Assembly: GCA_025352365.1 (NCBI GenBank)
Contig: JANXTO010000022.1
Coordinates: forward strand, 1-39,824
From: Undibacterium sp.
Lineage (GTDB): Bacteria; Pseudomonadota; Gammaproteobacteria; Burkholderiales; Burkholderiaceae_D
DNA: 39,824 nt
Direction: 5' to 3'
Below the pieces are notes generated by a model, which saw nothing but the letters and a program-made list of their open reading frames with translations, was not told the origin of the DNA and made no database searches. Both the position numbers and the translations under genes were made by a program. This document shows positions 511 to 21,509 of this stretch, in pieces (the stretch's first letter is position 1; every line of letters starts with the position of its first letter).

Positions 511-591
511 AATACTCCGTATTAGTATATTTATAGTGTCCATATAATCTCTGGACATTAAGGCATATTCCTTTAAATATAATGGGAGTAT
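511..591 (+). repeat. Dispersed structured element, copy 1
   Basis: One of four related non-coding elements in this window. TACTC (513-517) to GAGTA (586-590) spans 78 bp, as in the other copies. The ends ATACTCC (512-518) and GGAGTAT (585-591) are complementary. A central hairpin pairs GTGTCCA (536-542) with TGGACAT (552-558) around a loop containing TATAAT. One pair, G536 with T558, is a G-U wobble that would be an A-C mismatch on the other strand. The copy sits about 40 bp after the stop of the small HTH gene and points toward the copper operon, whose first gene starts about 305 bp further on. Confidence 0.8.
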
Positions 592-896
592 GTGGTTTTA
601 CGTCTTAAATTATTACATCATTCATTAATAGTCACGACGCAGTCTGATTTTATTTTTGCCCGATCAACTAGCAAATCACTTGATCGCGTAGAGCCAAACT
701 GAGTGCTTAGTACGGCAAGGATTTTTGGTACTTTTCTGGCGACACTTCATAGCTGATGTACTATGATGCCGATTGGGTGGCGTAAAAAGAGTTTGGATTT
801 TAATGGCCGGCTTGCGGTGACTGTTAATCCTCATCTACTCCTACGATCTGCTAACACCCATTGACACTGACTTGCCAAATAATTGCCAAATAACTT
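592..896. other. Non-coding stretch upstream of the copper operon
   Basis: About 305 nt with no convincing gene. Visible structure: CGATCAA (661-667) and TTGATCG (680-686) form a 7-bp inverted repeat spaced by 12 nt; TCATAG (747-752) and CTATGA (761-766) form a 6-bp one spaced by 8 nt; and the 11-mer TTGCCAAATAA is tandemly duplicated at 872-882 and 883-893, directly before the GTG start at 897. The promoter of the copper operon is expected here, but I could not recognise a CusR- or CueR-type operator. The inverted repeats are only candidates for regulator sites. Confidence 0.4.
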
Positions 897-1313
897 GTGA
901 AACTCTCTCATCCCTCTCGCCTGATTGCAGCGTTTTTAACGCTGTTTAGCATGCTGTTTATGCAGCTTGCTGTGGCGTCTTATACTTGCCCTGACAGGAC
1001 GATGGGTAATGTTATGAACGGTATGAGCGGCACGAGCAAAAACCTCAGCGCTATGACTATGGTGGGCTGCGAAGGTATGGACAGCGAGCAACCCGCACTG
1101 TGCCACGCCCATGCTGAAGATGCGTTTGGAAAACAATCGCTGGATAAACCAACAGCGCCGGATGTACCTGCCTTTGTACAGGCTGGATTAGTGCTGACGC
1201 TAGTCATCATTGAAATATCAGAACTCCCGCAAGAACCTCAGCGTCAAAGCTTATTGCTGGCACACTCTACCGCGCCGCCCATCGCTATCCGCAATTGCTG
1301 TTTCCGCATTTAA
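897..1313 (+). CDS. Small exported Cys/His-containing protein heading the copper efflux operon
   Basis: A 138-residue protein with an N-terminal signal peptide or anchor (positively charged MKLSHPSR, then a hydrophobic run to about residue 27, ending AVAS). The rest holds scattered cysteines and histidines, including the pattern C-E-G-M-D-S-E-Q-P-A-L-C-H-A-H, several methionines, a second hydrophobic stretch around residues 92-105, and a C-terminal CC. Cys, Met and His suit Cu(I) binding, and the gene lies 73 bp upstream of cusC on the same strand. A periplasmic copper-handling role is therefore reasonable, but it is inferred from composition and position. No cusF-like gene is seen in the operon, so this protein might fill that place. 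The GTG start at 897 is chosen because it gives a complete signal peptide; it lacks a clear Shine-Dalgarno and is preceded by an 11-bp tandem repeat. Confidence 0.6.
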   Translation: MKLSHPSRLIAAFLTLFSMLFMQLAVASYTCPDRTMGNVMNGMSGTSKNLSAMTMVGCEGMDSEQPALCHAHAEDAFGKQSLDKPTAPDVPAFVQAGLVLTLVIIEISELPQEPQRQSLLLAHSTAPPIAIRNCCFRI

Positions 1314-1386
1314 ATCTCCAGATCGCTTAGCTTGTTGCTGTACGTCTTTTTGACGACAGTGCCGTTGACCGTTCTCTGGAGATTCC

Positions 1387-2805
1387 ATGTCTTTCCCAAT
1401 CTGCGCACCTTTACTTGCGCGCCTTAATGCTGACCATCATTCTAAGCTAGTCAATACCCTATTCCGTGCCGGAAAAATCGGCAAAATAATCACCGTGTTC
1501 GTGATTACGCTGTCGTCACTCAACGTCAAGGCTGCGGATATATCACTAACTATGCCAATGACGTCGCAGACTGTGCCGCTCACCGTGCTGCTGACTTTGA
1601 GCCAAGCGCAGCAACTTGCGGTCGCCCGGTCACATCAACTGATTGCACAGGATTTAGCTACTACTGCCTCGCGTGAAATGGCGGTCGCTGCCGGACAATT
1701 GCCTGATCCGGTATTAAAAGCCGGCATCGATAATCTGCCTATTAACGGCCCTGACCGTGGCAGCCTGACCAGCGATTTTATGACGATGCGTCGTATCGGT
1801 GTGATGCAAGAACTGACCCGAAGCGATAAGCGCCAGTTACGCGCCCAGCGCTATGACCGGGCAGCCGATAAGTCGCTGGCAGAAAAATCCAACCTCATTA
1901 CCGCTATTCAACGCGATACCGCGATTGCCTGGTTAGACCAATACTATGCAGAACGCATGGCTATCGTGGTCGCAGAACAAACAGATCAAGCCAAGCTTGA
2001 AATCGACGCGGCGGAGGGAAATTATCGCGCTGGTCGCGGTAGCCAGGCAGATATCTTTAGCGCCCGTAGTGCGCTAAGTATGGCGAATGACCGCAGCAGT
2101 GACATCCAGCGCAAACTGCGCAACGCGAAGACGATGTTATATCGTTGGACCGGTGTTACTTCTGAACTGACTTTAGCTGAACAACCACAACTTGAAACCA
2201 TACGTCTGGATCAATCAACGCTAGACACTTCGCTTGCCCATCATCCGCAGATCGCCATATTGAATAGGCAAACAGAGCTGGCCGAAGCCGATGCCAAACT
2301 GGCCGAGGCGAATAAAAAATCGGACTGGTCTGTCGAGGTCGCTTTTCAGCAACGTGGTTCTGCCTATTCAAACATGGTGTCGGTCGGCGTATCACTGCCG
2401 TTTCAGTGGGATCAAAAGAACCGCCAGGATCGCGAGCTCTCTTCCAAACTAGCAATGGTAGAACAAGCCAAAGCCGAGCGTGACGAAATGCTGCGTGCCC
2501 ACGTCGCCGAGACCAAGGCAATGATAGACGAATGGCAAACCGAACTTGAGCGTATCGCCCGCTATGAGCGCGAATTAATCCCGTTGGCAGCAGAGCGCAC
2601 GCAAGCCACGATGGCGGCATACCGGGGCGGCAAATCTGGCCTGACTGAAGTATTGTCTGCACGCCGCAATGAGCTTGATATGCGCCTGCAAGCGCTGCAA
2701 CTTCAGTCCGATACCGCCCGTTTATGGGCACAACTGAATTTTCTATTTCCGACCGAAGTGTCAGGCATCCATTCGGCTCAGTCCATGAATAAGGATATCC
2801 AATGA
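1387..2805 (+). CDS. cusC: Outer-membrane channel of a Cu/Ag efflux system, TolC family
   Basis: A 472-residue TolC-family protein. It has a signal-like segment near residues 30-50 and then the long amphipathic helical repeats typical of this family, with the recognisable 'LTLSQAQQLAVARSHQLIAQD' region at its start and the second repeat ('HPQIAILNRQTELAEADAKLAEANKKSDW') in the middle. Such trimers form the outer-membrane duct of RND pumps. The specific copper/silver assignment comes from its neighbours: it overlaps cusB by four bases (ATGA, 2802-2805), so the two are almost certainly translationally coupled. A GGAG Shine-Dalgarno precedes the ATG at 1387. By sequence alone it belongs to the CzcC-like branch, so the name cusC rests on operon context. 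Confidence 0.85.
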   Translation: MSFPICAPLLARLNADHHSKLVNTLFRAGKIGKIITVFVITLSSLNVKAADISLTMPMTSQTVPLTVLLTLSQAQQLAVARSHQLIAQDLATTASREMAVAAGQLPDPVLKAGIDNLPINGPDRGSLTSDFMTMRRIGVMQELTRSDKRQLRAQRYDRAADKSLAEKSNLITAIQRDTAIAWLDQYYAERMAIVVAEQTDQAKLEIDAAEGNYRAGRGSQADIFSARSALSMANDRSSDIQRKLRNAKTMLYRWTGVTSELTLAEQPQLETIRLDQSTLDTSLAHHPQIAILNRQTELAEADAKLAEANKKSDWSVEVAFQQRGSAYSNMVSVGVSLPFQWDQKNRQDRELSSKLAMVEQAKAERDEMLRAHVAETKAMIDEWQTELERIARYERELIPLAAERTQATMAAYRGGKSGLTEVLSARRNELDMRLQALQLQSDTARLWAQLNFLFPTEVSGIHSAQSMNKDIQ

Positions 2806-4145
2806 AAAATAAAAATATCATCCACCTCACCGCAGGACTCGTTGCTATCGGAATGTTGGCAGGATTTGGTCTCTATCGTCTAGGCCTCAGTCAAGGCATG
2901 ACAGCCACCGCAACACCCCCGACAAATACAGCGATGGCAGCAGCCCCAGCTAAGGATAAGAAGGTACTGTATTGGCACGATCCTATGGTCCCCACCCAAA
3001 AGTTTGATCAACCGGGCAAGTCACCGTTTATGGACATGCAACTGGTACCGGTCTATGCCGATGGCGATAGTAATGGCGGAAACGACGGCAATGGTGATAA
3101 CGAAAACTCAGTCAGTATTAGTCCCCGGGTGCAGCAGAATTTGGGGATACGTACCACACAAGTGCTCAAAGGCAATCTGAGCCTGGCAGTAGCCGCGGTC
3201 GGTAGCGTTGCCTACAACGAACGTGAACTGACGTTAGTGCAGGCGCGCAACAATGGCTTTATCGAAAAATTGTATGTCCGCGCGGCCTTGGATATGGTTA
3301 AAAAAGGGCAAGCTCTAGCCGAATTATATGTGCCGGACTGGGTTGCAGCGCAGGAAGAATTTCTGACTGTAAAACGGATGCAGACGAGTGGCATAGAGGG
3401 ATTACTAGAGGCCGCTAAACAGCGTATGCGTCTGGTCGGCATGAGCGATGAACAAATCCATTTGGTAGAAACCAGTAGCAAGGTGCATCCACGCATCACG
3501 ATCACAGCGCCGGTCGGCGGCGTCATTACAGAATTGTCCGCACGCGAAGGGATGACCGTCATGACAGGCGCACCGATGTTCCGCATCAACGGCTTGGCAA
3601 CGATCTGGGTCAATGCCGATGTCCCGGAAAATAGTCTGACGCAGATACGTCCGGGTAACACGGTAGAGGCCAGCACCCCCTCCTTACCCGGCACGACCTT
3701 CAATGGGAAAATCAGTGCGATCTTGCCACAAGTCGATATGACGACCCGCACGCTAAAAGCCCGTATTGAACTGAACAATCCTTCCGGTCAATTGGTACCC
3801 GGTATGTTCGCTACCATTAAATTTAATTCCGACGCCCACAACAATATTTTGCTGGTACCGACAGAAGCCATCATCCAGACTGGCACCCGCTCGGTCGTGA
3901 TGATCGCTCAGGACAACGGCAAGTTTATGCCAGTCGATGTTGAGACCGGCATGGAAGCCAATGGTCAGATCGAAATCCGCAAGGGACTAGAAGTCGGGCA
4001 AAAGCTGGTTGTTTCGGGTCAGTTCTTAGTCGATTCAGAAGCTAGCCTGAAAGCGACAACGACCCGTATGAGCGACGGCTCTGCCAACGACGCTATGACG
4101 AGGACTATGGCAACGCCTGCACTTCCATCAGGAGCCAAAAAATGA
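2802..4145 (+). CDS. cusB: Periplasmic adaptor of the Cu/Ag efflux pump
   Basis: A 447-residue membrane-fusion protein joining the CusA pump to the CusC channel. Residues 1-32 hold a hydrophobic anchor or signal. Residues about 55-90 form the heavy-metal-binding domain, with 'YWHDPMVP' followed by '[13 protein letters not shown]'. Its methionines at 62, 77 and 79 have the same 15 and 2 spacing as the three Cu(I)-binding Met residues known from Escherichia coli CusB. After this come the barrel-sandwich/lipoyl, helical hairpin and beta-barrel regions ('[20 protein letters not shown]', '[13 protein letters not shown]'). The domain between about residues 91 and 105 is Gly/Asn/Asp-rich and probably flexible. 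The gene overlaps both cusC and cusA by four bases. Confidence 0.92.
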
Positions 4146-7100
4146 TGGCGAACCTCATCCGCTGGTCCATCGCCAACCGCTTTCTGGTATTGCTAGCAAG
4201 CTTGATGATGACCGCATGGGGTATCTGGTCACTGTCACGCACACCCTTGGATGCGATTCCAGACTTGTCCGATGTGCAGGTCATCATCCGCACCAGCTAC
4301 CCGGGTCAGGCACCGCAGATCGTTGAAAATCAGGTGACCTATCCCTTGACCACCACCATGCTCTCGGTGCCGGGAGCCAAGACGGTACGCGGTTATTCGT
4401 TTTTTGGCGACTCCTTCGTCTACGTATTGTTTGAAGACGGTACAGATATGTACTGGGCACGCTCACGTGTGCTGGAATACTTAAATCAGGTGCAGTCGCG
4501 TTTACCACCGCAAGCGAAAGCGTCGCTTGGCCCTGATGCTACCGGCGTAGGCTGGGTATATGAATACACGCTGGTAGATCGCAGCGGCACGATGGATTTA
4601 TCGCAGTTACGCGCCTTCCAGGATTGGTTTCTGAAATACGAATTGAAATCCGTTCCTAACGTATCCGAGGTCGCTAGTATCGGTGGCATGGTGCGGCAAT
4701 ATCAGGTGCAACTCGATCCTGACAAAATGCGTGCGTATAACATCCCTCACGGCAAAATCGTAGAGGCGATACAGAAAGCGAACCAAGAAACCGGTGGCTC
4801 AGTATTAGAACTGGGTGAGGCCGAATACATGGTGCGCGCTTCGGGCTATCTCAAAAGCTTGGATGACTTTCGTAAGATTCCTCTGACCACAACTGACGCT
4901 GGTGTGTCGGTGCGGCTAGGCGATGTAGCGCGTGTCCAGATCGGACCAGAAATGCGGCGTGGCATTGCCGACCTGAATGGCGAAGGCGAAGTCGCAGGCG
5001 GCGTGATTGTGATGCGCTCCGGTAAAAACGCCTTAGAAACCATCAAGGCCGTCAAAGCAAAATTAGAACAATTAAAAGCCAGCCTGCCGCCTGGGGTTGA
5101 GATCGTTACCACCTATGACCGCTCGCATCTGATCAAGCGTGCAGTCGATAATTTGCAAGAGAAATTGATAGAAGAATTTATCGTCGTCGCGCTGGTCTGC
5201 GCGATTTTTCTATTCCATTTGCGCTCAGCGTTAGTGGCTATCGTCACATTGCCGATGGGTATTTTGATTGCCTATATCGTCATGTATTACCAGGGAGTGA
5301 ACGCCAATATCATGTCACTGGGCGGAATCGCGATTGCTGTTGGCGCCATGGTGGATGCCGCAGTAGTGATGATAGAAAACGCACACAAACACATCGAGGC
5401 CTGGAACCATACCCATCCGGACAAACAATTATCCGGCGAAGAACACTGGCGGGTCATCGGCGATGCAGCGGCAGAAGTTGGCCCCGCACTTTTTTTCTCA
5501 CTCTTAATTATTGTGTTGTCGTTTATTCCGGTATTTACGCTAGAGGCGCAAGAGGGACGTTTATTTGTACCGCTCGCTTTTACCAAAACTTATGCCATGG
5601 CGGCTGCTGCCGTGCTGGCGGTGACACTGATTCCGGTATTAATGGGTTATCTGATCCGCGGCAACATTCCGGATGAACAAAAGAATCCGCTGAATCGTTT
5701 CTTCATTGCGCTCTACCGTCCCTTGCTGGATGTGGTACTGCATTCACCCAAAGCGACGCTGATCATTGCCGCCTTAGTCGTCGTTGCCACTCTTTGGCCA
5801 ATATCACATTTGGGCGGTGAGTTTATGCCGCCGCTGGATGAAGGTGATCTGTTGTATATGCCCTCTGCGCTGCCTGGCATTGGCGCCGGTAAGGTATCCG
5901 AATTACTGCAACAAACCGACCGTCTGATCAAGACCGTGCCGGAAGTGCAAACCGTCTTTGGTAAAGCAGGGCGTGCCGAATCGGCAACCGATCCCGCGCC
6001 GTTGGAGATGTTTGAGACCACCATACAGTTCAAACCACGCGATCAATGGCGTGCCGGGATGACCACCGACAAGTTGATAGAGGAACTGGACCGCATCGTC
6101 AAAGTACCCGGCTTATCCAACATCTGGGTACCACCGATCAGAAACCGTGTCGATATGCTGGCTACCGGCATCAAGAGTCCGGTCGGTATTAAAGTTGCCG
6201 GTGCCAGCTTAAAAGAAATCGACAGGATTACCGCCGACATTGAACGCGTCGTCAAAAATGTAGCAGGCGTATCTTCTGCCTTAGCAGAACGTTTAAACGG
6301 CGGCCGCTACATTGACATCGATATCAACCGGGATGTAGCAGCTCGTTATGGATTAAATATCGCGGATGTGCAAAGCATCGTTTCAGCGGCTATCGGTGGC
6401 GACAATATTGGGGAAACCGTCGAGGGCTTACAGCGCTTTCCGATTAACGTCCGCTACCCCCGCGAGCTACGTGACTCGGTAGAAAAATTACGTCAACTAC
6501 CGGTATTGACCGAACGTGGTGCGCAGATCCAATTAGGCGATATAGCTCAGATCCGCATCAACGATGGACCACCGATGTTGAAGAGTGAAAATGCACGACT
6601 GTCGGGCTGGGTTTATATCGATATCCACGACCGAGATTTAAATTCGACGGTGCATGAGATGCAGCAAGCAGTCGCCAAACAAGTGAAACTATCCGCTGGT
6701 TATTCAGTCACCTGGTCAGGTCAGTTTGAATATCTGGAACGCGCCACCGCCAAGATAAAAGTGGTAGTACCAGCGACCTTACTGATTATTTTTGTGCTGT
6801 TGTATATGACGTTTAATCGTATCGATGAGGCCGCACTGATCATGGCGACCTTGCCGTTTGCACTGGCTGGCGGGATTTGGCTGCTTTGGTTACTTGATCA
6901 TCACTTATCCGTTGCCAGCGGGGTAGGATTTATCGCTTTGGCAGGCGTCTCGGCAGAATTTGGCGTGATCATGTTGCTCTATCTTAAACAAGCGTGGGAT
7001 GCTCGCGTCTATATCGGAAAAGAAACCGAGCAAGATTTATTAGATGCGATTCGTGAAGGCGCGGTGTTGCGGGTAAGACCAAAAGCCATGACAGTAGCGG

Positions 7101-7309
7101 TGATTATTGCCGGGCTAGTGCCTATCATGTTGGGGCAAGGCACAGGCTCAGAGGTCATGCAACGCATCGCCGCACCGATGGTAGGCGGCATGATCACCGC
7201 GCCTTTATTGTCGATGTTTGTGGTGCCTGCGGTGTATTTTTTATTACGTCGAAAACAAATCAGAACGACGGTAGAAACATCAGCAGGCACGCCAGAGCGA
7301 CGAGGCTAA
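4142..7309 (+). CDS. cusA: Cu(I)/Ag(I) efflux RND pump, inner-membrane subunit
   Basis: A 1055-residue heavy-metal-efflux RND protein with twelve expected membrane helices and two large periplasmic loops. The three methionines that bind Cu(I) in Escherichia coli CusA are present at the same numbers here: M573 ('[10 protein letters not shown]'), M623 ('APLEMFETT') and M672 ('[11 protein letters not shown]'). The helix-4 aspartate of the proton relay is D405, in '[16 protein letters not shown]'. These residues make a Cu/Ag specificity much more likely than Co/Zn/Cd. The gene overlaps cusB by ATGA at 4142-4145. No cusRS regulators lie in the window, so regulation must come from elsewhere. The protein ends in a short charged tail after the last helix. 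Confidence 0.95.
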
Positions 7310-7419
7310 AGAGCCACCTAATTATAAGTTTGTAACACTTAGGTTTAGAAATCGTAGTTTAGCTATGTATGTGAATGTTAATATGATTTTCTAAGGTAAC
7401 TCTCACGGGACAAGTTCTT

Positions 7420-10146: not shown

Positions 10147-10201
10147 CGGATGAAAAGGTAGACGTCACCACTCGTTAGCGATGCTTGGCTAGGTTTGCGA
10201 G

Positions 10202-12005: not shown

Positions 12006-12048
12006 ATAAACAGCGTCATAAAAATAGCCTCAAAAAACAGCTTCATGA

Positions 12049-12134
12049 AATATACTCCCCGATATTTTATTCAAATAATGCCTATTGTCCATATAATACC
12101 TAGACAATTAAAATATACTAACCCCAAGTATATT
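12049..12134 (-). repeat. Dispersed structured element, copy 2 (between bigR and the sulfur transporter)
   Basis: Read on the minus strand it has the same 78-bp span from TACTT (12130-12126) to GAGTA (12057-12053). The outer arms AATATACT and AGTATATT pair, with a further U-G wobble inside. The central hairpin pairs TTGTCTA with TGGACAA, holding one U-G wobble that exists only on this strand. The outer edge of the element touches the TGA stop of bigR, and its other end lies about 43 bp before the YeeE/YedE start. It is thus an intercistronic element in the bigR operon. It ends in GGGGAG, eight bases before the ATG of a 14-codon leader frame. Confidence 0.8.
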
Positions 12135-12514
12135 CAGGACTTGGGACAATATAAGTCATACAAAAGCTGCAATAAATGCAGTACTTTGGGGTCGGCGATA
12201 GAGTAATGAATGCGCTTCCCGTCACGCCGCGTATCGACTAAACCTTCGGTTCGTAGCACGCCCAATTGCTGCGACAAGCTAGGTTGATGCAGGTCTAGCA
12301 GCTCTTCCAACTCACTAACGGACTTCTCGCCTTGGCTAAGCTGGCACAGCAGCAGTAAGCGATCTTCGTTACCCAAAGCACGTAAGGTGCTGCTGGCAGC
12401 TTGCGCAGCGACACGCATTTGTGCAATATCAAACGCATGTCCGGCTGGCTCTGTTGATTCTATTGTTTCTATTGTTTCTATTGTTTCTATTGATTCTATT
12501 GTTTGGGTAGTCAT
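12134..12514 (-). CDS. bigR: ArsR-family persulfide-sensing repressor, BigR/SqrR type
   Basis: A 126-residue winged-helix ArsR-family protein. Core helices run from about residue 35; the recognition region is 'SVSELEELLDLHQPSLSQQLGVLRTEGLVDTRR'. Two cysteines, C57 ('LLLLCQLSQGE') and C123 ('LYDLYCP'), are 66 residues apart, matching the redox pair of BigR (C42/C108) and SqrR (C41/C107), which form a disulfide or polysulfide bridge when reactive sulfur is present and then leave DNA. The neighbours fit: sulfur transporters downstream and a divergent persulfide dioxygenase. The N-terminal extension (about residues 6-20) is an IET/IES repeat encoded by a 9-bp tandem repeat, which could change length without breaking the frame. 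The likely operator is the inverted repeat at 12539-12566. Confidence 0.92.
   Translation of the reverse strand: MTTQTIESIETIETIETIESTEPAGHAFDIAQMRVAAQAASSTLRALGNEDRLLLLCQLSQGEKSVSELEELLDLHQPSLSQQLGVLRTEGLVDTRRDGKRIHYSIADPKVLHLLQLLYDLYCPKS
12458..12502. repeat. 9-bp tandem repeat inside the 5' end of bigR
   Basis: The plus strand shows five near-identical 9-mers in a row: GATTCTATT, then three of the form GTTTCTATT, then GATTCTATT. On the minus strand they encode the alternating Ile-Glu-Thr/Ser residues 6-20 of BigR. A unit of nine bases keeps the frame when copies are gained or lost, so the repeat may vary among strains in number but not by frameshift. Effect on the protein is unknown; the repeat lies ahead of the winged-helix core. 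Confidence 0.8.
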
Positions 12515-12523
12515 AGCAGCTCA

Positions 12524-12566: not shown

Positions 12567-12610
12567 GTCAAAAGAATATTTATCCCACTATCATTAGGAA
12601 TGAGGAAATC

Positions 12611-13483: not shown

Positions 13484-13536
13484 CGTTTTCTACCTATAGT
13501 TTTCTACTACAGCCTAGCCAGATTTATTCACCAGTT

Positions 13537-14850
13537 TTATGTACTCTCGACGAGCTCTTTAGGATAGATCCTTACCAGCACTATCCGTGGGCCATTCATT
13601 TTTTTCACTACTGCATCAAATTGCGGGAAACCAATTTTTTGGCCTTCAATCGGTAAATCGCCCAAGGTATGCATGATTAGACCGCCGATGGATTCTACTT
13701 CTTCGCTATCGATGTCGATGCCGAGTGCAATGCCCAAGGTGAACAAAGGCAAACTGCCTTTGCCCATCATCGTACCGTCGTCCAAAGTGACCCAATCGTT
13801 TTCATTCAAACGGAATTCGTCACGAATTTGCCCAACCAAAGCGCCTAACAAATTATCCAAAGTCAAAAAGCCCAGCGGCTTATTGTCTTTGTAACCGACG
13901 ATCGCAAAATGCGGTGCACCTTTACGAAAGCGCCGGAATAATTCTAGCGCAGGCATCGTCGGCGGGACAAATTCTACATAGCGCAAATGGCCGCTTAATT
14001 CATCTAGCGATTTACCGCTTTGCTGCGCCAGAAATAAGTCCTTCAAATGCAACATGCCAAGGACTGTTTTGCCATCTGCCTCCAGATACGGATAACGGCT
14101 GAAGCGATTGCGATACGCAGTTTCCATATTCTGCGCCAAGGTTTTATCCTTGTGCATCGCCACGACTTCGCTGAATGGACGCATCAGGTCAGAGACTTCC
14201 AGATCACCAAAATCCAGCATCTGCGCCATGATGCTCCACTCATCTGGCGTCAGTTTTTTACTGCCATGGCTGCCGCGCAAAATCAGCTTCAGTTCGTCCG
14301 GCGAGTAATGTATGTCGCCACCATGTGCGGCATCCAAGCCAATCCAGATTAAGACTTTATTGGCGCTGGCATTGAGCGCCCAGATAATCGGATACATCGT
14401 CCAATAAAATAAGTACAGCGCCGGTGCAGTCCACAACGAAACGGTCTCTGGCATACGGATCGCCATCGATTTTGGCGCCAGCTCACCGACCACAATATGC
14501 AAAAAAGAGATGCCGAAAAAGGCAAAAATGAAGGAAATGCCATGAATCAATTCTACCGAGACGACTCCAACGGCAACCAGCAGAGGCTCCAGCAAGCGGG
14601 CAAACGCAGGCTCACCTATCCAGCCCAGCCCCAAAGACGCCAGCGTAATACCAAGCTGGCAGGCCGATAAATAAGAATCCAGATGTTGATGCACGGTACC
14701 AAGTAAGCGTCCACGCACGCCGCCGGTTTTGGCAATACTGCGCACTCTGGTTTGACGCAATTTGACCAACCCAAATTCGGCGGCCACAAAAAAACCATTC
14801 AACACCACCAAAAACAAGGCGGCGATTACGAGCAAAAGATTATCCAACAC
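13537..14850 (-). CDS. CorC/HlyC-family membrane protein with DUF21, CBS pair and C-terminal transporter-associated domain
   Basis: A 437-residue protein. Residues 1-190 make the DUF21/CNNM transmembrane region with about four hydrophobic helices and the N-terminal 'LVVLNGFFVAAEFGLVKLRQTRVR' signature. A pair of CBS domains follows at about 210-335 ('VSDLMRPFSEVVAMHKD', then 'FAIVGYKDNKPLGFLTLDNLLGALVG'), and the CorC_HlyC domain at about 345-430. Family members are linked to magnesium and cobalt efflux or polyamine export; the substrate here is unknown. The old name 'hemolysin' for this family is misleading. Its 3' end faces the persulfide dioxygenase gene with only 53 bp between, and its 5' end faces copy 3 of the dispersed element. 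Confidence 0.9.
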   Translation of the reverse strand: MLDNLLLVIAALFLVVLNGFFVAAEFGLVKLRQTRVRSIAKTGGVRGRLLGTVHQHLDSYLSACQLGITLASLGLGWIGEPAFARLLEPLLVAVGVVSVELIHGISFIFAFFGISFLHIVVGELAPKSMAIRMPETVSLWTAPALYLFYWTMYPIIWALNASANKVLIWIGLDAAHGGDIHYSPDELKLILRGSHGSKKLTPDEWSIMAQMLDFGDLEVSDLMRPFSEVVAMHKDKTLAQNMETAYRNRFSRYPYLEADGKTVLGMLHLKDLFLAQQSGKSLDELSGHLRYVEFVPPTMPALELFRRFRKGAPHFAIVGYKDNKPLGFLTLDNLLGALVGQIRDEFRLNENDWVTLDDGTMMGKGSLPLFTLGIALGIDIDSEEVESIGGLIMHTLGDLPIEGQKIGFPQFDAVVKKMNGPRIVLVRIYPKELVEST

Positions 14851-15321
14851 AAACTTTCTGTCAACGAACCAACCGCTAATGTAGACTAGATTGAGGGAAC
14901 TTACCTAGTAATTGAGGTGTCAATATGCGATTACTTAGCAAGTATCACTTGAAAATTGCTACGGCCGCCAATATATACTCGGATCAAGTATATTTAAATT
15001 GTCCATATAATCATTGGACAATAGGCATATTTTTCAATAAAAACAGGGGAGTATATTGAAAATACTAGAAAAAACCGGCTCGGACAGATTAAATCAGATA
15101 GCATAAAAATACTGGCAGCGGCGAACATAGACAGACGTCGCATTCCGTAGCTGCAAGCTTGGCGTACAGAAAAATTCGGGCTGTATCTTTAGGACTTTTA
15201 CTGCTTTCGCACGCTCTCTACTCATCTCTGAGCTTACTTCCGCACATATTAACGGCACTTAGTTATAAGCAATCGTGCCAAGATGACATAGAATCCGACA
15301 AAGCTCATCCGCAAGAAAGAA
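14851..15321. other. Non-coding stretch between corC-like gene and gcr-like gene
   Basis: About 470 nt between divergent genes. It holds copy 3 of the dispersed element (14970-15057). A 44-codon frame (ATG 14925, with GAGGTG upstream, stop 15057-15059) crosses the element, but copy 1 has a stop in the same frame, so I do not call it a gene. Another open frame at 15159-15416 overlaps the start of the next gene, has no support, and is also left out. No other structure stood out. Confidence 0.4.
14970..15057 (+). repeat. Dispersed structured element, copy 3
   Basis: TACTC (14976-14980) to GAGTA (15049-15053) is 78 bp. The outer arms ATATACTC and GAGTATAT pair, and the central hairpin ATTGTCCA (14998-15005) with TGGACAAT (15015-15022) is fully Watson-Crick, making this the most regular copy. 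TATAAT lies in the loop (15006-15011). It ends AGGGGAGTATATT like copies 2 and 4. This copy stands upstream of two divergent genes and is oriented with the gcr-like gene, which starts about 265 bp downstream. Confidence 0.85.
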
Positions 15322-17442
15322 ATGGAGAAAACATTGTCTATCGACAGCATCCTTATTCGCATCTCTCAAATCAGACAGCAAGACCCACTCTATCGAGATA
15401 TAGATTGTTTGCGTGATCTGGTCGCAGCGCTACGCCCTGCCCGCATCCACAATATTGGGCAAGCTACCGACAATATCCGTGCGCTGTGCTACCTGTTAAA
15501 GCAACATCCGGATTGGGCGCGCAGCCTGCGTGAATACATCGCGCAAGTAATCACGACCCGCAAATTGGTACATCTGTTTACCGACACTGGCATCACCCAA
15601 AACAAGGGATTTTGGGGTGCCGCCTGGCATCAATTAGCAGAGAAGTTTTTGCCGCCGCTGGTCAATGACGACTACCTTAAAGATTTGTTCGGTCAACTAT
15701 TTAATAACGCTAACGACTATCGCTGGGTATCGGGCGTCAGTGATGAAGTCTGGCTAGAGTTATTCATGAGTCTGGGTTTTAGAGTCTCCAACCCGCGTCC
15801 GATCTATGCCGCAATGACGCAAGAAGTACTCAGCGCCGTACAAGTCTTGTCTTACCGTATCACTACGATTGGCCTAGAGGCAGAACTGGTCAGAAATTAT
15901 CCTGATATAGAACGCTTTGAATCACCATTTTTACGCCAGAACGATGCCATCAACGATTACATTGTTGGTCATAGCGATTGGTTAATCGATAAAGAAATAA
16001 GCCGCGAAGACAGTTTGCATATCGAAGTGTTACTGACGCAGTGTGAAGAAGTCGTACTCAAAATCAGACGTACCGCGGCGATGCAAGGCGTATCCGTCAG
16101 CCTGACGCGTTTGCTATTACGCCTGACACAAAGTATCGAGCGCTTACGGATTTTATTAACTCTGCTGGATACCCGCAGCGCCAAATCTGCGGCGATGATC
16201 GGTGTCGCGCTGTTAAAAGAATTGGTATTAGCCGATAACAAAAACGGCAGTATCCGCGACCTGATCCAGACCAATACTGAATTATTGTCATTGCAAGTCA
16301 CTGAGCATGCTGGTAAGAGCGGTGAACATTACGTCACGACCAATCGCAAAGAATGGTACGAAATGATGCGCTCGGCAATGGGCGCGGGATTTATTGTCGG
16401 CTTTATGGCGATGATCAAAATCCTATTTGGCAAATTGATCATGGCGCCGTTTGGCTATGCCGTTTTATATAGCCTGAACTATTCATTCGGATTTATGTTT
16501 GTGCATGTCTTGCACTTTACGATTGCGACCAAACAGCCTGCGATGACCGCTGCACTCATCGCCAAATCAATTGATAAAGGCAAGCAAAAACTCGATAAAC
16601 TGGTCGAGCTGATTGTACAAGTATTGCGTTCACAATTTATTGCGATTCTCGGTAACGTAGGGATTGCGATCCCGACTGCCTTTGCGATTGCCTGGGCATG
16701 GTTTGCGATCTCCGGTCACCACATGGTGACGGTCGATAAAGCCCACCACTTGCTGCAGGATATTGATCCTATCCACAGTCTGGCACTTCCGCATGCGGCA
16801 ATTGCCGGCGTGTGCTTGTTTTTGTCTGGATTGATTTCGGGCTATTACGACAATAAAGCCGCGTATTCGCGCATACCAGAACGCTTGCGCCAATTACGTT
16901 GGTTAAGAGCGATCTTGGGCGAATCACGTTTGCATAAAATGACCAACTATATCGGCAATAATCTGGGGGCATTAGCAGGTAATTTTTTCTTCGGTGTGAT
17001 GCTGGGTACGATAGGTCAGTTGGGCGTATTCTTTGGATTGCCGATTGATATTCGCCATATCACTTTCTCCAGTGCTAACTTTGCCTTTGCACTAGCGGCG
17101 ATGGACAACCATATGCCCTGGCAAGTAGTTGTCACTTCGCTGTCGGGTATTTTGTTGGTAGGTCTGACCAATTTAGGTGTGAGTTTTTCACTGGCGATGA
17201 TGGTTGCCTTGCGGTCTAAGCGCGTGAGTTTTGGCCAAGGCAGAGCTCTGAATAAAATGCTGTGGAAGCGGTTTTGGTCAGGCACCAGAGATTTCTTTTT
17301 ACCACCCAAAGAAGTCACTGGCATAGACCCAGTGACGGCAGCGACACTGGACGAAGAAGCGAAAGAGGCGGAACAATCGGCACAATCCATTAATGCCGCG
17401 TCGGTACCAGATAAAAAACCGATTGAGCACAAGTCTCACTGA
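15322..17442 (+). CDS. Gcr-type 'site-specific recombinase' (COG4389), a polytopic membrane protein of unknown function
   Basis: A 706-residue protein of the family annotated as site-specific recombinase Gcr. The N-terminal half (about 1-340) is helical and soluble-looking. The C-terminal half (about 350-640) has at least seven hydrophobic stretches, such as 'GAGFIVGFMAMIKILFGKLI', 'FIAILGNVGIAIPTAFAIAW' and 'GILLVGLTNLGVSFSLAMMV'. I see no tyrosine- or serine-recombinase active-site pattern, so the recombinase label is doubtful and a membrane role is more likely. The tail is charged and Ala/Glu-rich. The start ATG at 15322 follows an A/G-rich AAGAAAGA. Two perfect hairpins follow the stop, at 17455-17475 and 17496-17527. 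Confidence 0.8.
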   Translation: MEKTLSIDSILIRISQIRQQDPLYRDIDCLRDLVAALRPARIHNIGQATDNIRALCYLLKQHPDWARSLREYIAQVITTRKLVHLFTDTGITQNKGFWGAAWHQLAEKFLPPLVNDDYLKDLFGQLFNNANDYRWVSGVSDEVWLELFMSLGFRVSNPRPIYAAMTQEVLSAVQVLSYRITTIGLEAELVRNYPDIERFESPFLRQNDAINDYIVGHSDWLIDKEISREDSLHIEVLLTQCEEVVLKIRRTAAMQGVSVSLTRLLLRLTQSIERLRILLTLLDTRSAKSAAMIGVALLKELVLADNKNGSIRDLIQTNTELLSLQVTEHAGKSGEHYVTTNRKEWYEMMRSAMGAGFIVGFMAMIKILFGKLIMAPFGYAVLYSLNYSFGFMFVHVLHFTIATKQPAMTAALIAKSIDKGKQKLDKLVELIVQVLRSQFIAILGNVGIAIPTAFAIAWAWFAISGHHMVTVDKAHHLLQDIDPIHSLALPHAAIAGVCLFLSGLISGYYDNKAAYSRIPERLRQLRWLRAILGESRLHKMTNYIGNNLGALAGNFFFGVMLGTIGQLGVFFGLPIDIRHITFSSANFAFALAAMDNHMPWQVVVTSLSGILLVGLTNLGVSFSLAMMVALRSKRVSFGQGRALNKMLWKRFWSGTRDFFLPPKEVTGIDPVTAATLDEEAKEAEQSAQSINAASVPDKKPIEHKSH

Positions 17443-17454
17443 CGATAAACTCAT

Positions 17455-17475
17455 TGGCACTTGCTAAGTGCCAAC
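17455..17475 (+). terminator. Hairpin after the gcr-like gene
   Basis: TTGGCACTT (17455-17463) and AAGTGCCAA (17467-17475) form a perfect 9-bp stem with a 3-nt loop, 12 bp after the stop codon. There is no U-run after it, so it may stabilise the 3' end or act with the next hairpin rather than terminate on its own. Confidence 0.5.
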
Positions 17476-17495
17476 TGATATATCTAAGCTCTCTC

Positions 17496-17527
17496 AGGTC
17501 TCTGAACAAAGTCTTGTTCAGAGACCT
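17496..17527 (+). terminator. Perfect 14-bp hairpin between gcr-like and bestrophin-like genes
   Basis: AGGTCTCTGAACAA (17496-17509) and TTGTTCAGAGACCT (17514-17527) pair perfectly around the loop AGTC. It is followed by TAAATATTC, an AT-rich stretch but not a clean U-run. It is probably a terminator or mRNA-end stabiliser in the 124-bp gap before the next same-strand gene. Confidence 0.6.
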
Positions 17528-17566
17528 TAAATATTCTCGCTATCAAATCATCGCCGGGACAGTAAA

Positions 17567-18340
17567 ATGGAATTTTTGTACCAAATCGATGCTTGGAAAA
17601 TCGCACTCAGTTTATTGATCTGTCTGTTCCTGATGATTGAGATCAGTTACCGCTTCGGTAAGCGTAATGATCCTGCGGTATATGAGCAATCCAGCTCCGT
17701 GTTTACTACTTTAATGGGGGCTGCTCTGGCCTTGCTGGGATTGTTACTCGCGTTCTCGTTTGCGATGGCCTCCGCCCGTTATGATCTGCGAAAAAATATT
17801 ATTTTGAAAGAAGCCAATGCGATCGGCACTACGTATTTGCGGGCTGATTTACTCGATCCTAATGTGCGCGATCAAGTCAAAAGTAAATTAAAGGACTACA
17901 CCAAAATTCGTCTGGCTAGCTATCAGACCAGCATTAATCAAAAACAAATTAGCCAGGTCAGTCAGCAGACGAATCAATTACAGCAAGAAATCTGGAACAT
18001 CGCCAGTAGCGAGCTACGGCGTGAAAGACAAATGAATAATTCACTATTTGTGCAAGCACTCAATGACATGATTGATGTCAGCGCAGAACAAAATGATGCG
18101 CGAGAAAATCATGTACCTGAATCCGTATTCTGGCTGCTGTTTATCTCGGCACTGTTGACAGCCGCGCTCAGCGGCTATGCCTGCGGTGCCATTGGTCATC
18201 GCAACATAATGGCAACGAGCATATTTGCGCTGTTGGTCGCGTTAGTGATTTTCTCCATCATTGATCTGGACCGGCCACAACGCGGCTTAATTCAGGTGAA
18301 CAAGCATCCTATGCAAAGTGTGCTGGAGAGTATGCAATAG
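17567..18340 (+). CDS. Bestrophin-like/DUF4239 membrane protein
   Basis: A 257-residue protein with two N-terminal membrane helices (about 12-28 and 46-68), a long charged and helical middle region (about 70-180, with 'KEANAIGTTYLRADLLDP', which is typical of this family), and two C-terminal helices (about 185-208 and 213-235). This is the layout of the DUF4239 or bestrophin-like domain. A channel function has been suggested for the family by remote similarity only; no substrate can be read here. It lies alone between hairpin structures upstream and a 204-bp gap downstream. Confidence 0.78.
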   Translation: MEFLYQIDAWKIALSLLICLFLMIEISYRFGKRNDPAVYEQSSSVFTTLMGAALALLGLLLAFSFAMASARYDLRKNIILKEANAIGTTYLRADLLDPNVRDQVKSKLKDYTKIRLASYQTSINQKQISQVSQQTNQLQQEIWNIASSELRRERQMNNSLFVQALNDMIDVSAEQNDARENHVPESVFWLLFISALLTAALSGYACGAIGHRNIMATSIFALLVALVIFSIIDLDRPQRGLIQVNKHPMQSVLESMQ

Positions 18341-18544
18341 AGAGCTGAAAAGCTGAGTAAAAAGCGTATTGGTTAAAAAGATGATGTCATTTAGTCGCGC
18401 AATTTTTTTAAAAATATCAATAATAAAACGTCAACCTAAACGAGCTTGATCGCGTTATCCTCATGTCCTTATCTTTACGTGTACCCAAGCTTCTGAGCAT
18501 TGCGTGGGTATCGCGCCCATCACAATTCGACATCAAGGATTTTC

Positions 18545-19552
18545 ATGCAAAGATCTTCTGCCGCTATCGTCTCAACTAGTCTTGCAGTCAGCATTACCAT
18601 CAGCTTGTCTGTACTGGTATCCCAATCCGCATTTGCCAACGACTATTCGCCTTTATTTAAAGCAAAAAAATATGATGAAGTGGCGCGTGTCGCCAACGCC
18701 AAACTCAGCGTCGAGCCGAATAATGCAGATGCATTAATTGCCAAAGCCAAATTGATTTTGATCGAGGGTAAAGAAAGTCGTTTAGACGAAGCAGCAAAGC
18801 TAGCTGAGCAATGCATTAACGCCAATCCAAGCAACTCGGATTGTCAGGAAAGTCTGGGGGAAGTATTAGGTACCAAAGCCATGCGCGGCGGGATTATGTC
18901 AGCGATTGGTTATGCCAGCAAAATACGTGATGCCTTCCAAAAAGCAGTCGAACTCAATCCCCAAAATATAGAAGCACGCAGCTCCTTGATGGAGTACTAC
19001 ATGCAAGCGCCAAGCATCGCAGGTGGTGGTAAAGGCAAAGCTGAAAAACTCATTACAGAGACAATAAAAATTGTCCCGGCAGCCGGCACTTTAATGCAAG
19101 CTAAGCTGGATATCGCAGACGAGAATTTCAGCAAAGCTGAAGCCGCGATTTTATCAGTCAACGCTACCAATTCAGAACAGTTGAGCGATATGCAAGCCGA
19201 TCTGCTGCAAAGTTTAGGCAGCAATTATGTAAAGCAGAAAAAATATGCCGATGCATCCCGTGTATTTCAAGAGTCGCAACGTCGCTTCCCGGACAAGCAA
19301 GGCGGCTTTTATGGCATGGCCAGAAATCTGCAAGAGCAAGGCAAGCACAAAGAAGCCATCACTTTTTTTGAGAAAGCTCTCGCTATCGATGCGCAATCCT
19401 ATACCTACTATCGCATGGGCCAATGTCTGCAAGCTTTAAGCGACAAAGCCAAAGCGATAGTCACTTTTGAAAAAGCATTGAGCTTTAAACCAGAGCTACC
19501 GAAAAAAATCAAAGACGATGTTGAGGCGCAGTTGAAAATGCTGAAAGGCTGA
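18545..19552 (+). CDS. Exported TPR-repeat protein
   Basis: A 335-residue protein. The ATG at 18545 is chosen because AAGGA lies a few bases before it and it begins a clear signal peptide (MQRSS, a hydrophobic run, then SQSAFA and a cut near residue 30); the frame is open a further 45 bp upstream. The mature part is built from tetratricopeptide repeats: Lys/Ala-rich helical pairs such as 'YDEVARVANAKLSVEPNNADALIAKAKL', 'KYADASRVFQESQRRFPDKQGGFYGMARNLQ' and 'HKEAITFFEKALAIDAQSYTYYRMGQCLQ'. TPR proteins of the periplasm hold protein complexes together; no partner is evident here. An 11-bp hairpin (19626-19658) follows about 75 bp after the stop. Confidence 0.85.
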   Translation: MQRSSAAIVSTSLAVSITISLSVLVSQSAFANDYSPLFKAKKYDEVARVANAKLSVEPNNADALIAKAKLILIEGKESRLDEAAKLAEQCINANPSNSDCQESLGEVLGTKAMRGGIMSAIGYASKIRDAFQKAVELNPQNIEARSSLMEYYMQAPSIAGGGKGKAEKLITETIKIVPAAGTLMQAKLDIADENFSKAEAAILSVNATNSEQLSDMQADLLQSLGSNYVKQKKYADASRVFQESQRRFPDKQGGFYGMARNLQEQGKHKEAITFFEKALAIDAQSYTYYRMGQCLQALSDKAKAIVTFEKALSFKPELPKKIKDDVEAQLKMLKG

Positions 19553-19959
19553 TTCGGCGCCTGACCATCAGCAGGTTAGAAGTTATTTTCTACCCTCATT
19601 TTTTTCTATTCCTCTATAAATCATCTACCGTTTCAGGCGAGTGTGGTCTGAAACGGTACACATTCTGCAAATAAGGTCATTTTTATATCAAAAAATTTGA
19701 CCTCTCCCATGAGTCAATTCACAATCCCTGTGTCGGTACAGCATTAAGATTGCTATCGAACAAGAGAAAGTACGGCACTCATTAATTCGATCATGAATCA
19801 CTGAGTAGTCAGTATTTCCAATCATGTTCGAAACTAAGATTGATCTGAATTTAAATCGTCTGCGTACTTATTTAAAAATAGCTGCGTGTACGTGAATAGT
19901 TGCGTGGTTACGTCATCTTTTTTGCGAGCTCTTTATCTGCAAGTTTTACAAGGCACTCC
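19553..19959. other. Non-coding stretch upstream of the RND operon
   Basis: About 407 nt without a convincing gene. Apart from the hairpin at 19626-19658, I see only AT-rich sequence with loosely similar short words (TCGATCATGAATCA, ATCATGTTCGA) that might belong to a regulator site. No clear promoter could be placed. The promoter of the nodT-adaptor-pump operon is expected here. Confidence 0.35.
19626..19658 (+). terminator. Hairpin after the TPR gene
   Basis: TACCGTTTCAG (19626-19636) and CTGAAACGGTA (19648-19658) pair perfectly over 11 bp with an 11-nt loop. No U-run follows (CACATTCTGC), so a terminator is possible but a protein-binding palindrome cannot be excluded. Confidence 0.4.
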
Positions 19960-21396
19960 ATGGCTTTAAGCGCCAAAAAACTTGTTTTCTCCCCTTCTGT
20001 CGCTGCCTTGTGCCTAAGCGGGTTATTGTCTTCCTGTAGTTTGAGCACACCTAAGCCAGATCAGCACCTGCTTGATAATAATGCCGCAACCTGGCAAACA
20101 AATTTACCGCCGTCTGAGAAGGTGGATGTTGCACAAAATCTTTCTGCCTGGTGGGATAGCTGGAACGACGCTACGCTGAGCCAGCTTCAACAAGTTGCGC
20201 AGCAACAAAATCAAAGTCTGGCGCAAGCCACCGCCCGCATAGGGCAGGCGCGCGCCGATGCGGCAGCAGCGGGAGCTGCGCTTTGGCCTAGCGTCAACCT
20301 GACGGCCAGCGTGACGGCTGGTCGCAATCCACAATTACTGCAAACCAGCAAACAAACGCTGGCGATCGCGGGGCTAGATGCCAAGTGGGAAGTCGATTTA
20401 TTTGGCGCAGTATCGGTAGCTCGCCGCGGTGTGGTGGCGCGGCTCAATGCGCGTGAAACCGAGTGGCACGATGCCAGGATTAGTCTTGCAGCAGAAGTTG
20501 CCAACACCTATATCAGCTTACGTGTTTGCGAAGCGCAAGCTGATTTACAGCAACGAGCCCTGCAGTCGCAAGAACTGGCGCAGCAACTGACAACTCGCAA
20601 AGCCGAAGCTGGCTTTATCTCACCTCTGGAGCTGGCACAGCAAGCCGCCGTGGTCGCTAATGTGCAAACCCAATTACAGCATCAGCAAAGTGATTGTGCG
20701 GTACTCGTCAAATCCTTGGTTGTCTTAAGTACCTTGCCCGAGGCGCAATTGCGCCAGATGTTGAGCGCGCGGCGTGGGCAATTGCCGCAAGTCAGTAGTT
20801 TTATTGTCGATGCAATCCCCGCCAAAGTGTTATTGCAACGCCCCGACTTGCGCGCCAGTTTATATAACCTGACCGCTAGTGCAGCGGAGATCGGCGTTGC
20901 AGAAGCGCGGCGTTATCCTTCTATATCTTTACTCGGCTCGATCAATGTATTTGGTGTGCGCATTGGAGACCAAACGATGCGAGATAGCAGCTGGTCGTTC
21001 GGCCCCAGCCTGGATTTGCCCTTGTTTGATGCGGGCAAGCGCAAAGCGGCGGTGGATGGAGCGCAAGCGCGTTATGCCGAGACTCTAGCGGCGTTCCGCC
21101 AGCAAAGTTTGATCGCCATCCGCGAAGTCGAAGAGGCAATGGTCAAATTGAATGCCGTCAACCAGCATCTGCAAAGCTATGCTGCTATTGAAACAGCAAA
21201 TACAAAATCACTAGAAAGCGCCGAAGCAGGCGTCCGCTTTGGCAGTAATAGCGTGCTCGATAAAGAAGATGCCTTGCGTCAGCAACTCAGCAGTCAGCAA
21301 CAAAAATTATCTTTGCAGCGCGATCGGGCAAGTGCCTGGATTGCGCTGTATAAAGCGATCGGTGGTGATTGGAAAACTACCTCGACAACAGAATAA
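19960..21396 (+). CDS. NodT-family outer-membrane efflux lipoprotein
   Basis: A 478-residue RND outer-membrane channel. The start at ATG 19960 gives a lipoprotein signal with the lipobox LLSSC (acylated Cys at residue 26); the frame also runs 60 bp further upstream from a TTG, which would weaken this signal. Family features are the 'WWDSWNDATLSQLQQVAQQQNQSLAQA' start, 'LDAKWEVDLFGAVSVARRGV' and the C-terminal half-repeat 'VDAIPAKVLLQRPDLRASLYNL'. It works as a trimeric duct with the next two genes. AAGG lies just upstream of the ATG. Copy 4 of the dispersed element starts about 30 bp after its stop, inside the likely operon. Confidence 0.88.
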   Translation: MALSAKKLVFSPSVAALCLSGLLSSCSLSTPKPDQHLLDNNAATWQTNLPPSEKVDVAQNLSAWWDSWNDATLSQLQQVAQQQNQSLAQATARIGQARADAAAAGAALWPSVNLTASVTAGRNPQLLQTSKQTLAIAGLDAKWEVDLFGAVSVARRGVVARLNARETEWHDARISLAAEVANTYISLRVCEAQADLQQRALQSQELAQQLTTRKAEAGFISPLELAQQAAVVANVQTQLQHQQSDCAVLVKSLVVLSTLPEAQLRQMLSARRGQLPQVSSFIVDAIPAKVLLQRPDLRASLYNLTASAAEIGVAEARRYPSISLLGSINVFGVRIGDQTMRDSSWSFGPSLDLPLFDAGKRKAAVDGAQARYAETLAAFRQQSLIAIREVEEAMVKLNAVNQHLQSYAAIETANTKSLESAEAGVRFGSNSVLDKEDALRQQLSSQQQKLSLQRDRASAWIALYKAIGGDWKTTSTTE

Positions 21397-21425
21397 ATAC
21401 TTATGCAGACACTTTGATATAAATA

Positions 21426-21509
21426 AATACTCCCTACAGGTATATTTAAATTGTCCTTATAATCATTGGGCAATAGGATATATTTAAAAACATAATGGGG
21501 GAGTATATT
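21426..21509 (+). repeat. Dispersed structured element, copy 4 (between nodT-like gene and adaptor gene)
   Basis: TACTC (21428-21432) to GAGTA (21501-21505) is 78 bp. The ends ATACTCCC and GGGAGTAT pair. The central hairpin pairs ATTGTCC (21450-21456) with GGGCAAT (21468-21474), including a T454-G470 wobble (offsets in 21000) that holds only on this strand. TATAAT lies in the loop (21458-21463). A frame opened by the TTG at 21508, just after GGGGGAG, runs 30 codons and stops at TGA 21598-21600, overlapping the adaptor start as ATGA. Confidence 0.82.

What the first reader, a model, noticed from the sequence alone, without database searches (positions are those of the whole stretch)
511..21509. 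A four-copy 78-bp structured element, all copies oriented with the next gene
Copies at 511-591, 12049-12134 (minus), 14970-15057 and 21426-21509 align end to end with no net gap: TACTY to GAGTA is exactly 78 bp in each. Shared features are complementary ends, GTATATTT at core positions 13-20, a 7-bp hairpin at 24-30/40-46 and a GGGAG block before the end. Each copy faces the downstream gene: the copper operon, sulfur transporter operon, gcr-like gene and RND adaptor. Three copies follow a same-strand stop codon by 0-40 bp. I know of no named family that matches, though ERIC-, REP- or MITE-type repeats behave like this.
Basis: partly seen in the sequence, partly recalled or inferred. Interest (0 to 1): 0.82.

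Follow-up and report, generated by a model that had tools for sequence, protein, structure and literature searches.

The report
Ancient fixed-length intergenic DNA repeat, Undibacterium
Many copies of a 78-base DNA element sit just after genes in Undibacterium bacteria; their ends and near-exact length are kept, at some of the same chromosomal places in different species, while the middle differs by species, which points to docking sites for DNA-binding proteins rather than to switches for the next gene.

Summary
The four copies are real: ungapped 78-mers. They belong to a large dispersed Undibacterium family: 39 copies in 390 kb of this genome, about 400 by extrapolation, null 0; no Rfam match to the element.

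'Facing the next gene' fails genome-wide: orientation is random (34 sense, 27 antisense). Copies sit near stop codons (52 of 61) and are depleted between divergent genes.

In 33 copy pairs shared with a ~95%-identical sister, indels are about 15-fold rarer inside the element than in flanking intergenic DNA. End motifs change 0.8-3% versus about 10%. The 'hairpin' arms do not co-vary in the main set, though a 20-copy subset disagrees. Of 7 testable copies of other species, 6 lie at element loci of this lineage in the same orientation; the 7th overlaps a variant copy. The centre is species-specific. A second form has its 3' block reversed.

Best explanation: a vertically inherited, selected, spacing-dependent protein-docking site at gene ends, working like REP/BIME arrays; the proteins are unknown. 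Membership in REP/REPIN is not met (no GTAG/CGTC tag, no consistent RAYT link).

The parts
511..592 (+). Element copy 1 (type A) with two flanking bases each side: M1 511-532 (TATACTCC-N-AGTATATTT type), centre 535-559, M3 577-592 (GGGAGTAT block)
   Evidence: (89.2 bits, E 2.5e-13); both flanks could not be placed in the sister genome
12051..12132 (-). Element copy 2 (type A): M1 12111-12132, centre 12084-12108, M3 12051-12066; starts 3 bp after the stop codon of the ArsR-type regulator ORF
   Evidence: (80.2 bits, E 1.7e-11); present at the same place in G015; no element recognised at that place in G011
14974..15055 (+). Element copy 3 (type A): M1 14974-14995, centre 14998-15022, M3 15040-15055; one of the few copies between divergent genes
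   Evidence: (94.3 bits, E 2.4e-14); present at the same place in G015; no element recognised at that place in G011
21426..21507 (+). Element copy 4 (type A): M1 21426-21447, centre 21450-21474, M3 21492-21507
   Evidence: 88.7 bits, E 3.2e-13; flanks could not be placed in G015

Best explanation
The element is a DNA-level docking site of fixed geometry, not an RNA switch for the next gene. Three blocks are held at fixed spacing: M1, a palindrome TATACTCC-N4-6-AGTATATTT at the 5' end; a central inverted repeat whose sequence is species-specific (TTGTCCA-N9-TGGACAAT here); and M3, AAAAATAATGGGGAGTATA at the 3' end, usually forward, sometimes reversed. SHOWN: about one copy per 10 kb in this genome, nearly all intergenic and close to stop codons, no orientation preference, the same loci in other Undibacterium species where this could be compared, strong selection on the end motifs and on length between sister genomes, and a centre that differs between species. 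INFERRED: one conserved protein, probably dimeric, binds the AGTATA half-sites of M1 and M3, and a second, faster-evolving dimeric protein (or another domain) binds the centre, so that the sites in a genome follow its changing specificity. The complex at gene 3' ends would act much as gyrase- and IHF-binding BIMEs are thought to act in E. coli (recalled), as a node for supercoil relaxation or insulation between neighbouring transcription units. The binding proteins and the cellular effect have not been identified.
For: Length and spacing: 2 indels in 2,694 element bp vs 75 in 6,564 flanking intergenic bp over 33 ortholog pairs, p 3e-9. Ends: substitutions TATACT 0.8%, GTATATTT 2.4%, GGGGAGTATA 2.9%, TGGACAAT 6%, against 11.9% for the 5' arm TTGTCC (21 pairs of 82-mers) and 10.1% for flanking intergenic DNA. 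Half-elements are rare: 5 of 181 strong M1 and 12 of 174 strong M3 motifs lack a partner. Placement: 98 classified type A copies are 61 tandem, 29 convergent, 8 divergent; 52 of 61 tandem copies lie nearer the upstream stop; 34 sense vs 27 antisense; 1 of 103 in a gene. No co-variation of the central arms: arm-swap P 0.73, n 41; not among the five best helices in 68 copies. Shared loci: 29 of 29 evaluable G015 copies (of 33) are present in G000; 3 of 3 testable G011 copies (of 5; one by a single flank) lie at G000/G015 loci; 6 of 7 testable copies of other species (of 96; two of them at one locus) likewise, same orientation in 6 of 6, where about 11% of intergenic intervals hold a copy (98 copies, 869 intervals). 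Centre: identity 0.59 within vs 0.44 between six groups, while the neighbouring AT arm gives 0.575 vs 0.558. M3 reversed: 15 copies after overlaps were removed (26 raw matches, null 1).
Against: No binding protein was found and nothing was tested in vitro. Copy number varies widely (about 400 here; capped, lower-bound counts 117 in G133/U. rivi, 95, 57, 39, 23, 16, 13, 11 elsewhere), and 8 of 10 G000/G015 loci comparable with G011 have no element recognised there, so copies are gained or lost as with mobile repeats. Fifteen Undibacterium genomes show none or one with model R2 and live without it. Some copies in relatives look like intrinsic terminators (6 of 16 U. rivi copies; shuffled strands 4 of 32), and the 81-mer set shows excess arm pairing. 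Whole-element substitution is only slightly below the flanks (8.5 vs 10.1%).
Confidence: 0.45

Rival explanations
1. A REPIN/MITE-like replicator: the 78-mer is a non-autonomous mobile element spread by an unidentified transposase, and species-specific centres are successive master sequences. Host function is absent or secondary.
For: Inverted ends TACTCC...GGAGTA (type A); copy number from 0-1 to about 400 between species; 8 of 10 comparable loci without an element in G011; REP-like placement at gene 3' ends; a RAYT-like Y1 gene in this genome with one copy 131 bp beyond its stop codon.
Against: No clean empty site in 33 evaluable G000 copies of 38 (31 present, 1 split by an insertion sequence, 1 in a rearranged segment) and 29 of 29 evaluable in the other direction. 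Fixed orthologous copies are constrained at ends and length, which neutral ageing of single copies would not give. Type B copies lack inverted ends. Half-elements are rare. Y1 matches occur in all 26 genomes tested, with or without elements; of 13 RAYT-like loci read, only that of G000 carries an exact-ended copy (the G015 ortholog was not read).
Confidence: 0.25
2. A 3'-UTR RNA element or (bidirectional) transcription terminator that protects or ends transcripts.
For: Position after stop codons and between convergent genes. Some copies in U. rivi and G013 contain stems followed by T tracts. At one convergent pair G011 has an intrinsic terminator where G015 has the element. Six of seven folded copies (two of them cut 1-2 bases off register) are 1.6 SD or more below shuffles.
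Against: Terminator-like score in only 5 of 37 G000 and 1 of 30 G015 copies. No orientation bias relative to the upstream gene. No co-variation of the central arms in 41 copies and none standing out in 68. No Rfam match to the element.
Confidence: 0.16
3. A cis-regulatory element for the downstream gene.
For: All four window copies face the next gene. The only copies found in G004 and G282 (model R2) lie at one locus shared with G000, G015 and a G302 (U. jejuense) copy, inside a nag-like sugar gene cluster (gene names by recall from the translations).
Against: Genome-wide orientation is random, and copies avoid divergent intergenic regions and the start-codon side; an early 63-copy count gave 29 with and 34 against the next gene.
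Confidence: 0.04

Closest known systems
REP / BIME (GTAG- and CGTC-tagged extragenic palindromes)
   Same: High-copy short intergenic palindromic repeats, mostly between convergent or co-directional genes and near 3' ends, with family- or species-specific sequence (abstract and the genome-distribution section of PMC3733652 read). Insertion sequences in such repeats have a precedent (PMC1525189, search listing only). Binding of gyrase and IHF by BIMEs is recalled.
   Different: No GTAG or CGTC tag; a three-block unit of about 75-79 bp rather than 20-40 bp units; no consistent RAYT neighbourhood; arms do not co-vary in the main set of this lineage; ends and length are constrained in fixed orthologous copies.
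REPINs (RAYT-mobilised REP doublets)
   Same: A two-ended element with complementary ends that persists for long times in genomes (PMC3116915, passages; PMC8049555, passages).
   Different: A form with a reversed 3' block exists, half-units are rare, no mobility was seen between the two sister genomes, and RAYT-like genes are present in genomes with and without elements.
MITEs such as Correia/NEMIS, ERIC
   Same: Short, high-copy, mostly intergenic, with inverted ends (PMC10969869, passages only; the TA target duplication of Correia is recalled).
   Different: No empty site or target duplication found; type B lacks inverted ends; internal length is under selection; no parental insertion sequence was found in the stretches read.
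Intrinsic terminators / SPRITE-like 3' elements (recalled)
   Same: Placed after stop codons; some relatives' copies contain stem plus T tract.
   Different: Most copies of this lineage lack a usable stem plus T tract.

Membership tests
REP (GTAG/CGTC super-families) | GTAG or CGTC tag beside the palindrome | tested here: not met
   The conserved motif is GTAT(ATTT) before the centre; consensus and frequencies
REP (GTAG/CGTC super-families) | Intergenic, mostly between convergent or co-directional genes, near 3' ends | tested here: met
   61 tandem, 29 convergent, 8 divergent of 98; 1 of 103 in a gene
REPIN | RAYT (Y1 transposase) associated with and flanked by the repeat | tested here: not met
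   Y1 in 26 of 26 genomes irrespective of elements; of 13 RAYT-like loci read only G000's has an exact-ended copy nearby
REPIN | Palindromic arms maintained by pairing | tested here: inconclusive
   No co-variation in 41 copies and none standing out in 68; the 20-copy 81-mer set gave 0 of 5000 arm swaps, possibly a register artefact
MITE | Terminal inverted repeats | tested here: inconclusive
   Present in type A; absent in the type B form
MITE | Empty sites / target-site duplication in relatives | tested here: inconclusive
   No clean empty site in 33 evaluable G000 copies and 29 evaluable G015 copies; 8 of 10 loci lack the element in G011 but are too diverged to read junctions
Rfam RNA families | Match to a curated covariance model | tested here: not met
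   0 at gathering thresholds in the window; in 8 loci with other copies only two sub-threshold mir-3047 hits, on both strands at one place in L226 away from the listed element
Intrinsic terminator | GC stem followed by T tract | tested here: not met
   5 of 37 G000, 1 of 30 G015 copies; up to 6 of 16 in U. rivi
BIME-type protein docking (gyrase, IHF, Pol I; recalled) | Specific protein binding | not testable with these tools
   Needs biochemistry; only selection on spacing and motifs is shown

The most novel reading that the evidence does not exclude
A genus-wide set of chromosomal docking sites, tens to hundreds per genome in the species that have it, whose shared members keep their locus, orientation, ends and length (within a base or two) over the divergence of the genus while their central recognition sequence is exchanged in concert at the sites of a species. 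That would be a genome-scale co-evolution of one fast-changing DNA-binding protein with its sites, and the whole system can be lost in a lineage.
Probability: 0.33. Interest if true: 0.8.

Novelty: new variant of a known kind. Interest (0 to 1): 0.63.

Why it matters
What bacterial intergenic repeats do, and whether they are selfish, is an old question. Here fixed orthologous copies show measurable selection on ends and length, the arms of the central inverted repeat do not co-vary in the main set, and the centre differs by species, also at shared loci. Gains and apparent losses across one genus give a natural experiment for finding the partner gene by its presence/absence pattern. If proteins dock there, it is a tractable model for how gene ends are insulated and how a DNA-binding specificity can shift across hundreds of sites.

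Tried and rejected
RNA or riboregulator: fold z-scores are modest (0.3 to -3.5 in 7 copies), no Rfam match to the element, no co-variation in the main set; rejected as the main function. Terminator class; rejected for most copies. RAYT/Y1 partner: no association. Plasmid or phage origin: copy 3 as query gave no hit; seven viral-contig pattern hits are unrelated in sequence. Coding potential: U. rivi-type 76-mers have an open frame with fewer stops than column shuffles (10 vs 19.3), but the 77-mers do not (11 vs 12.8, P 0.29) and the frame is not open upstream; not pursued. An automatically iterated end profile for G133 drifted and was discarded; model R2 replaced it. The neighbouring PF10136 'site-specific recombinase' gene as a partner: that region also matches G005 and G003 and G005 has no element with either model, so not discriminating. 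Literature: searches naming Undibacterium with repeats, MITE, palindromes or comparative genomics and one on miniature or intergenic repeats in Herbaspirillum/Oxalobacteraceae listed no paper on this element; listings only, open-access library only.

Limits: gene calls are from my own simple finder. Copy counts from whole-genome model searches are lower bounds because about 150 candidates per genome are scored. 'Absent' means no match with models built from two groups of species; the exact-end pattern alone missed G003, which has 13 copies, and gave 2 hits in G252 and 1 in G259 that model R2 does not score. Ortholog copies were picked as matches in one genome, which biases divergence slightly downward. 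Two of the 33 pairs were matched by order, not by both flanks. The groups pool U. rivi with U. aquatile and G016 with a MAG, and include orthologs, which raises within-group identity. In one search only 5 of 9 shared-locus comparisons were usable, three of them at one locus. One search counts both strands, so some copies appear twice.
Full report
OBSERVATION. The four copies are in the window as described, ungapped 78-mers with an exact GTATATTT block and complementary ends. A covariance model from nine copies, these four included, found 150 matches in the own genome, the scoring cap, all with E at or below 2.2e-8. An end-motif profile finds 39 copies in 390 kb of this genome, 32 in 400 kb of sister genome G015, 5 in 360 kb of G011, and none in reversed sequence. 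That extrapolates to about 400 copies in 4.0 Mb.

WHERE IT OCCURS. Exact paired ends TACTCCN65-67GGAGTA occur 160 times in G000, 185 in G015 and 12-45 times in eight other Undibacterium genomes; 12 of the 268 same-family genomes outside the genus have one each, fewer than have the backward-read control pattern. An rpoB tree, rooted on one long-branched genome of another genus, puts the element-bearing MAG NC_groundwater_817 (G313) outside the other genomes sampled; several forks are open and G313 has an unusual base composition. With model R2 the element has no match in G005, G308, G204, G001, G012, G266, G252, G161, G010, G002, G193, G259, and one match each in G225, G282 and G004, while G003 has 13. 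On that tree this reads as ancestral presence and about four losses; repeated gain is not excluded. The single copies of G004 and G282 lie at the same locus, which also holds a copy in G000/G015 (C329:54862) and in U. jejuense.

ANATOMY. Blocks: M1 TATACTCC-N-AGTATATTT, a centre, and M3 ending GGGGAGTATA. In 1.19 Mb of G000 and G015, 132 type A matches (both strands, some copies counted twice) have total lengths 82 (92), 81 (32), 83 (3), 80 (2) and three outliers; null 1. A second form with the same 5' half and centre but M3 reversed gave 26 raw matches, null 1, several of them type A copies read from the other strand. After removing overlaps, one search counted 103 type A and 15 type B copies. 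Strong solitary motifs are rare: 5 of 181 M1 and 12 of 174 M3 (one M3 'solo' is the copy split by an insertion sequence).

PLACEMENT. Of 103 type A copies, 1 overlaps a called gene and 4 are at edges. The other 98 are 61 tandem, 29 convergent (15.3% expected from intergenic bp, p 3e-4) and 8 divergent (26.9% expected, p 6e-6). In tandem pairs 52 of 61 are nearer the upstream stop (median 82 vs 208 bp), and orientation is 34 sense vs 27 antisense, p 0.44. The window's 4-of-4 orientation towards the next gene is therefore not a property of the family.

SELECTION. G015 is about 95% identical in this region. Of 38 G000 copies given, 33 had both flanks in the fetched G015 DNA: 31 hold the element, one is split by an insertion sequence (HTH_38 and rve domains; IS30 family by recall), one lies in a rearranged segment with only a weak match; no clean empty site. 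In the other direction 29 of 33 were evaluable and all 29 are present. Over 33 aligned pairs indels are 2 in 2,694 element bp vs 75 in 6,564 flanking intergenic bp (p 3e-9), while overall substitutions are 8.5% vs 10.1%. Within 21 pairs of 82-mers, TATACT 0.8%, GTATATTT 2.4%, GGGGAGTATA 2.9%, TGGACAAT 6.0%; TTGTCC 11.9% and the loop 12.9%. So ends and length are constrained and most of the interior is not.

NOT A MAINTAINED HAIRPIN, MOSTLY. In 41 equal-length copies pairing of the central arms equals arm-swapped pairing (288 vs 288.7, P 0.73); in 68 copies the helix is not among the top five. The 20-copy 81-mer set gave the opposite result (140 vs 132.9, 0 of 5000), which I suspect reflects mixed register but cannot exclude.

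SAME LOCI, DIFFERENT CENTRES. Three of three testable G011 copies (of five; one, L113, by a single flank) lie at G000/G015 element loci. Of 96 distinct copies from other species, 7 had both flanks in the fetched G000/G015 DNA: 6 have an element there, at five distinct loci, same orientation in 6 of 6; the seventh falls on a 90-bp type B copy. About 11% of intergenic intervals there hold a copy (98 copies, 869 intervals), so chance would give about one. One locus (C188:53331) is shared by G000, G015, G011, U. rivi and U. aquatile. Against this, 8 of 10 G000/G015 loci comparable in G011 had no recognised element, including window copies 2 and 3. The centre is species-specific (0.59 within, 0.44 between six groups) but the adjacent AT arm hardly is (0.575 vs 0.558), which argues against whole-tract replacement. 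At five usable shared-locus comparisons of nine, three of them at one locus, ortholog centres average 0.50 identity, own-species 0.58 and 0.68, random cross-species 0.45.

MECHANISM. Shown: selection on ends and spacing, shared loci, 3'-end placement, species-specific centre. Inferred: one conserved protein on M1/M3, a second with changing specificity on the centre, acting at gene ends. The partner is unknown. The nearest functional analogy is BIME/REP arrays; membership in REP/REPIN is not met and MITE membership is undecided (see the tests).

Noticed in passing
L087:2019-3205 (G015, ortholog of G000 C329:21918-21999): An insertion sequence with HTH_38/rve domains (IS30 family by recall; 333 aa ORF) sits inside an element copy, splitting it.
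   Followed up: partly
G000 C329:54862-54943, G015 C1 ~2222804, L176, L338, L341: One locus inside a nag-like cluster (SIS-domain gene / ABC sugar-binding gene, names by recall) carries the element in five genomes and is the only copy found in G004 and G282.
   Followed up: partly
G000 C205:48-129(-) and 111-191(+): Two copies overlap head to head near a contig end, sharing part of their ends.
   Followed up: no
copies in L196-L255 (U. rivi, aquatile, MAG JACPWS): The interior reads as an open frame (YSPQYILKPFIYAEIK-like) with fewer stops than column shuffles in 76-mers; not in 77-mers, not open upstream.
   Followed up: partly
L106:14556-14638 (G011): A 79-bp element whose interior is a strong stem with A and T tracts, a likely bidirectional terminator, unlike the other four copies found in the fetched G011 DNA.
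   Followed up: no
window 12441-12512: A 9-bp tandem repeat (TCTATTGTT) in the N-terminal part of the ArsR-type regulator ORF next to copy 2.
   Followed up: no
window 28532-29082: A tandem duplication of 275 nt (75% identical) inside the long ORF 26686-29556.
   Followed up: no
window 31909-31957: Perfect 21-bp inverted repeat with 7-nt loop between convergent ORFs, a likely intrinsic terminator.
   Followed up: no
window 15322-17442: The gene after copy 3 matches PF10136 SpecificRecomb (E 1.3e-234), a family I recall as poorly understood.
   Followed up: partly
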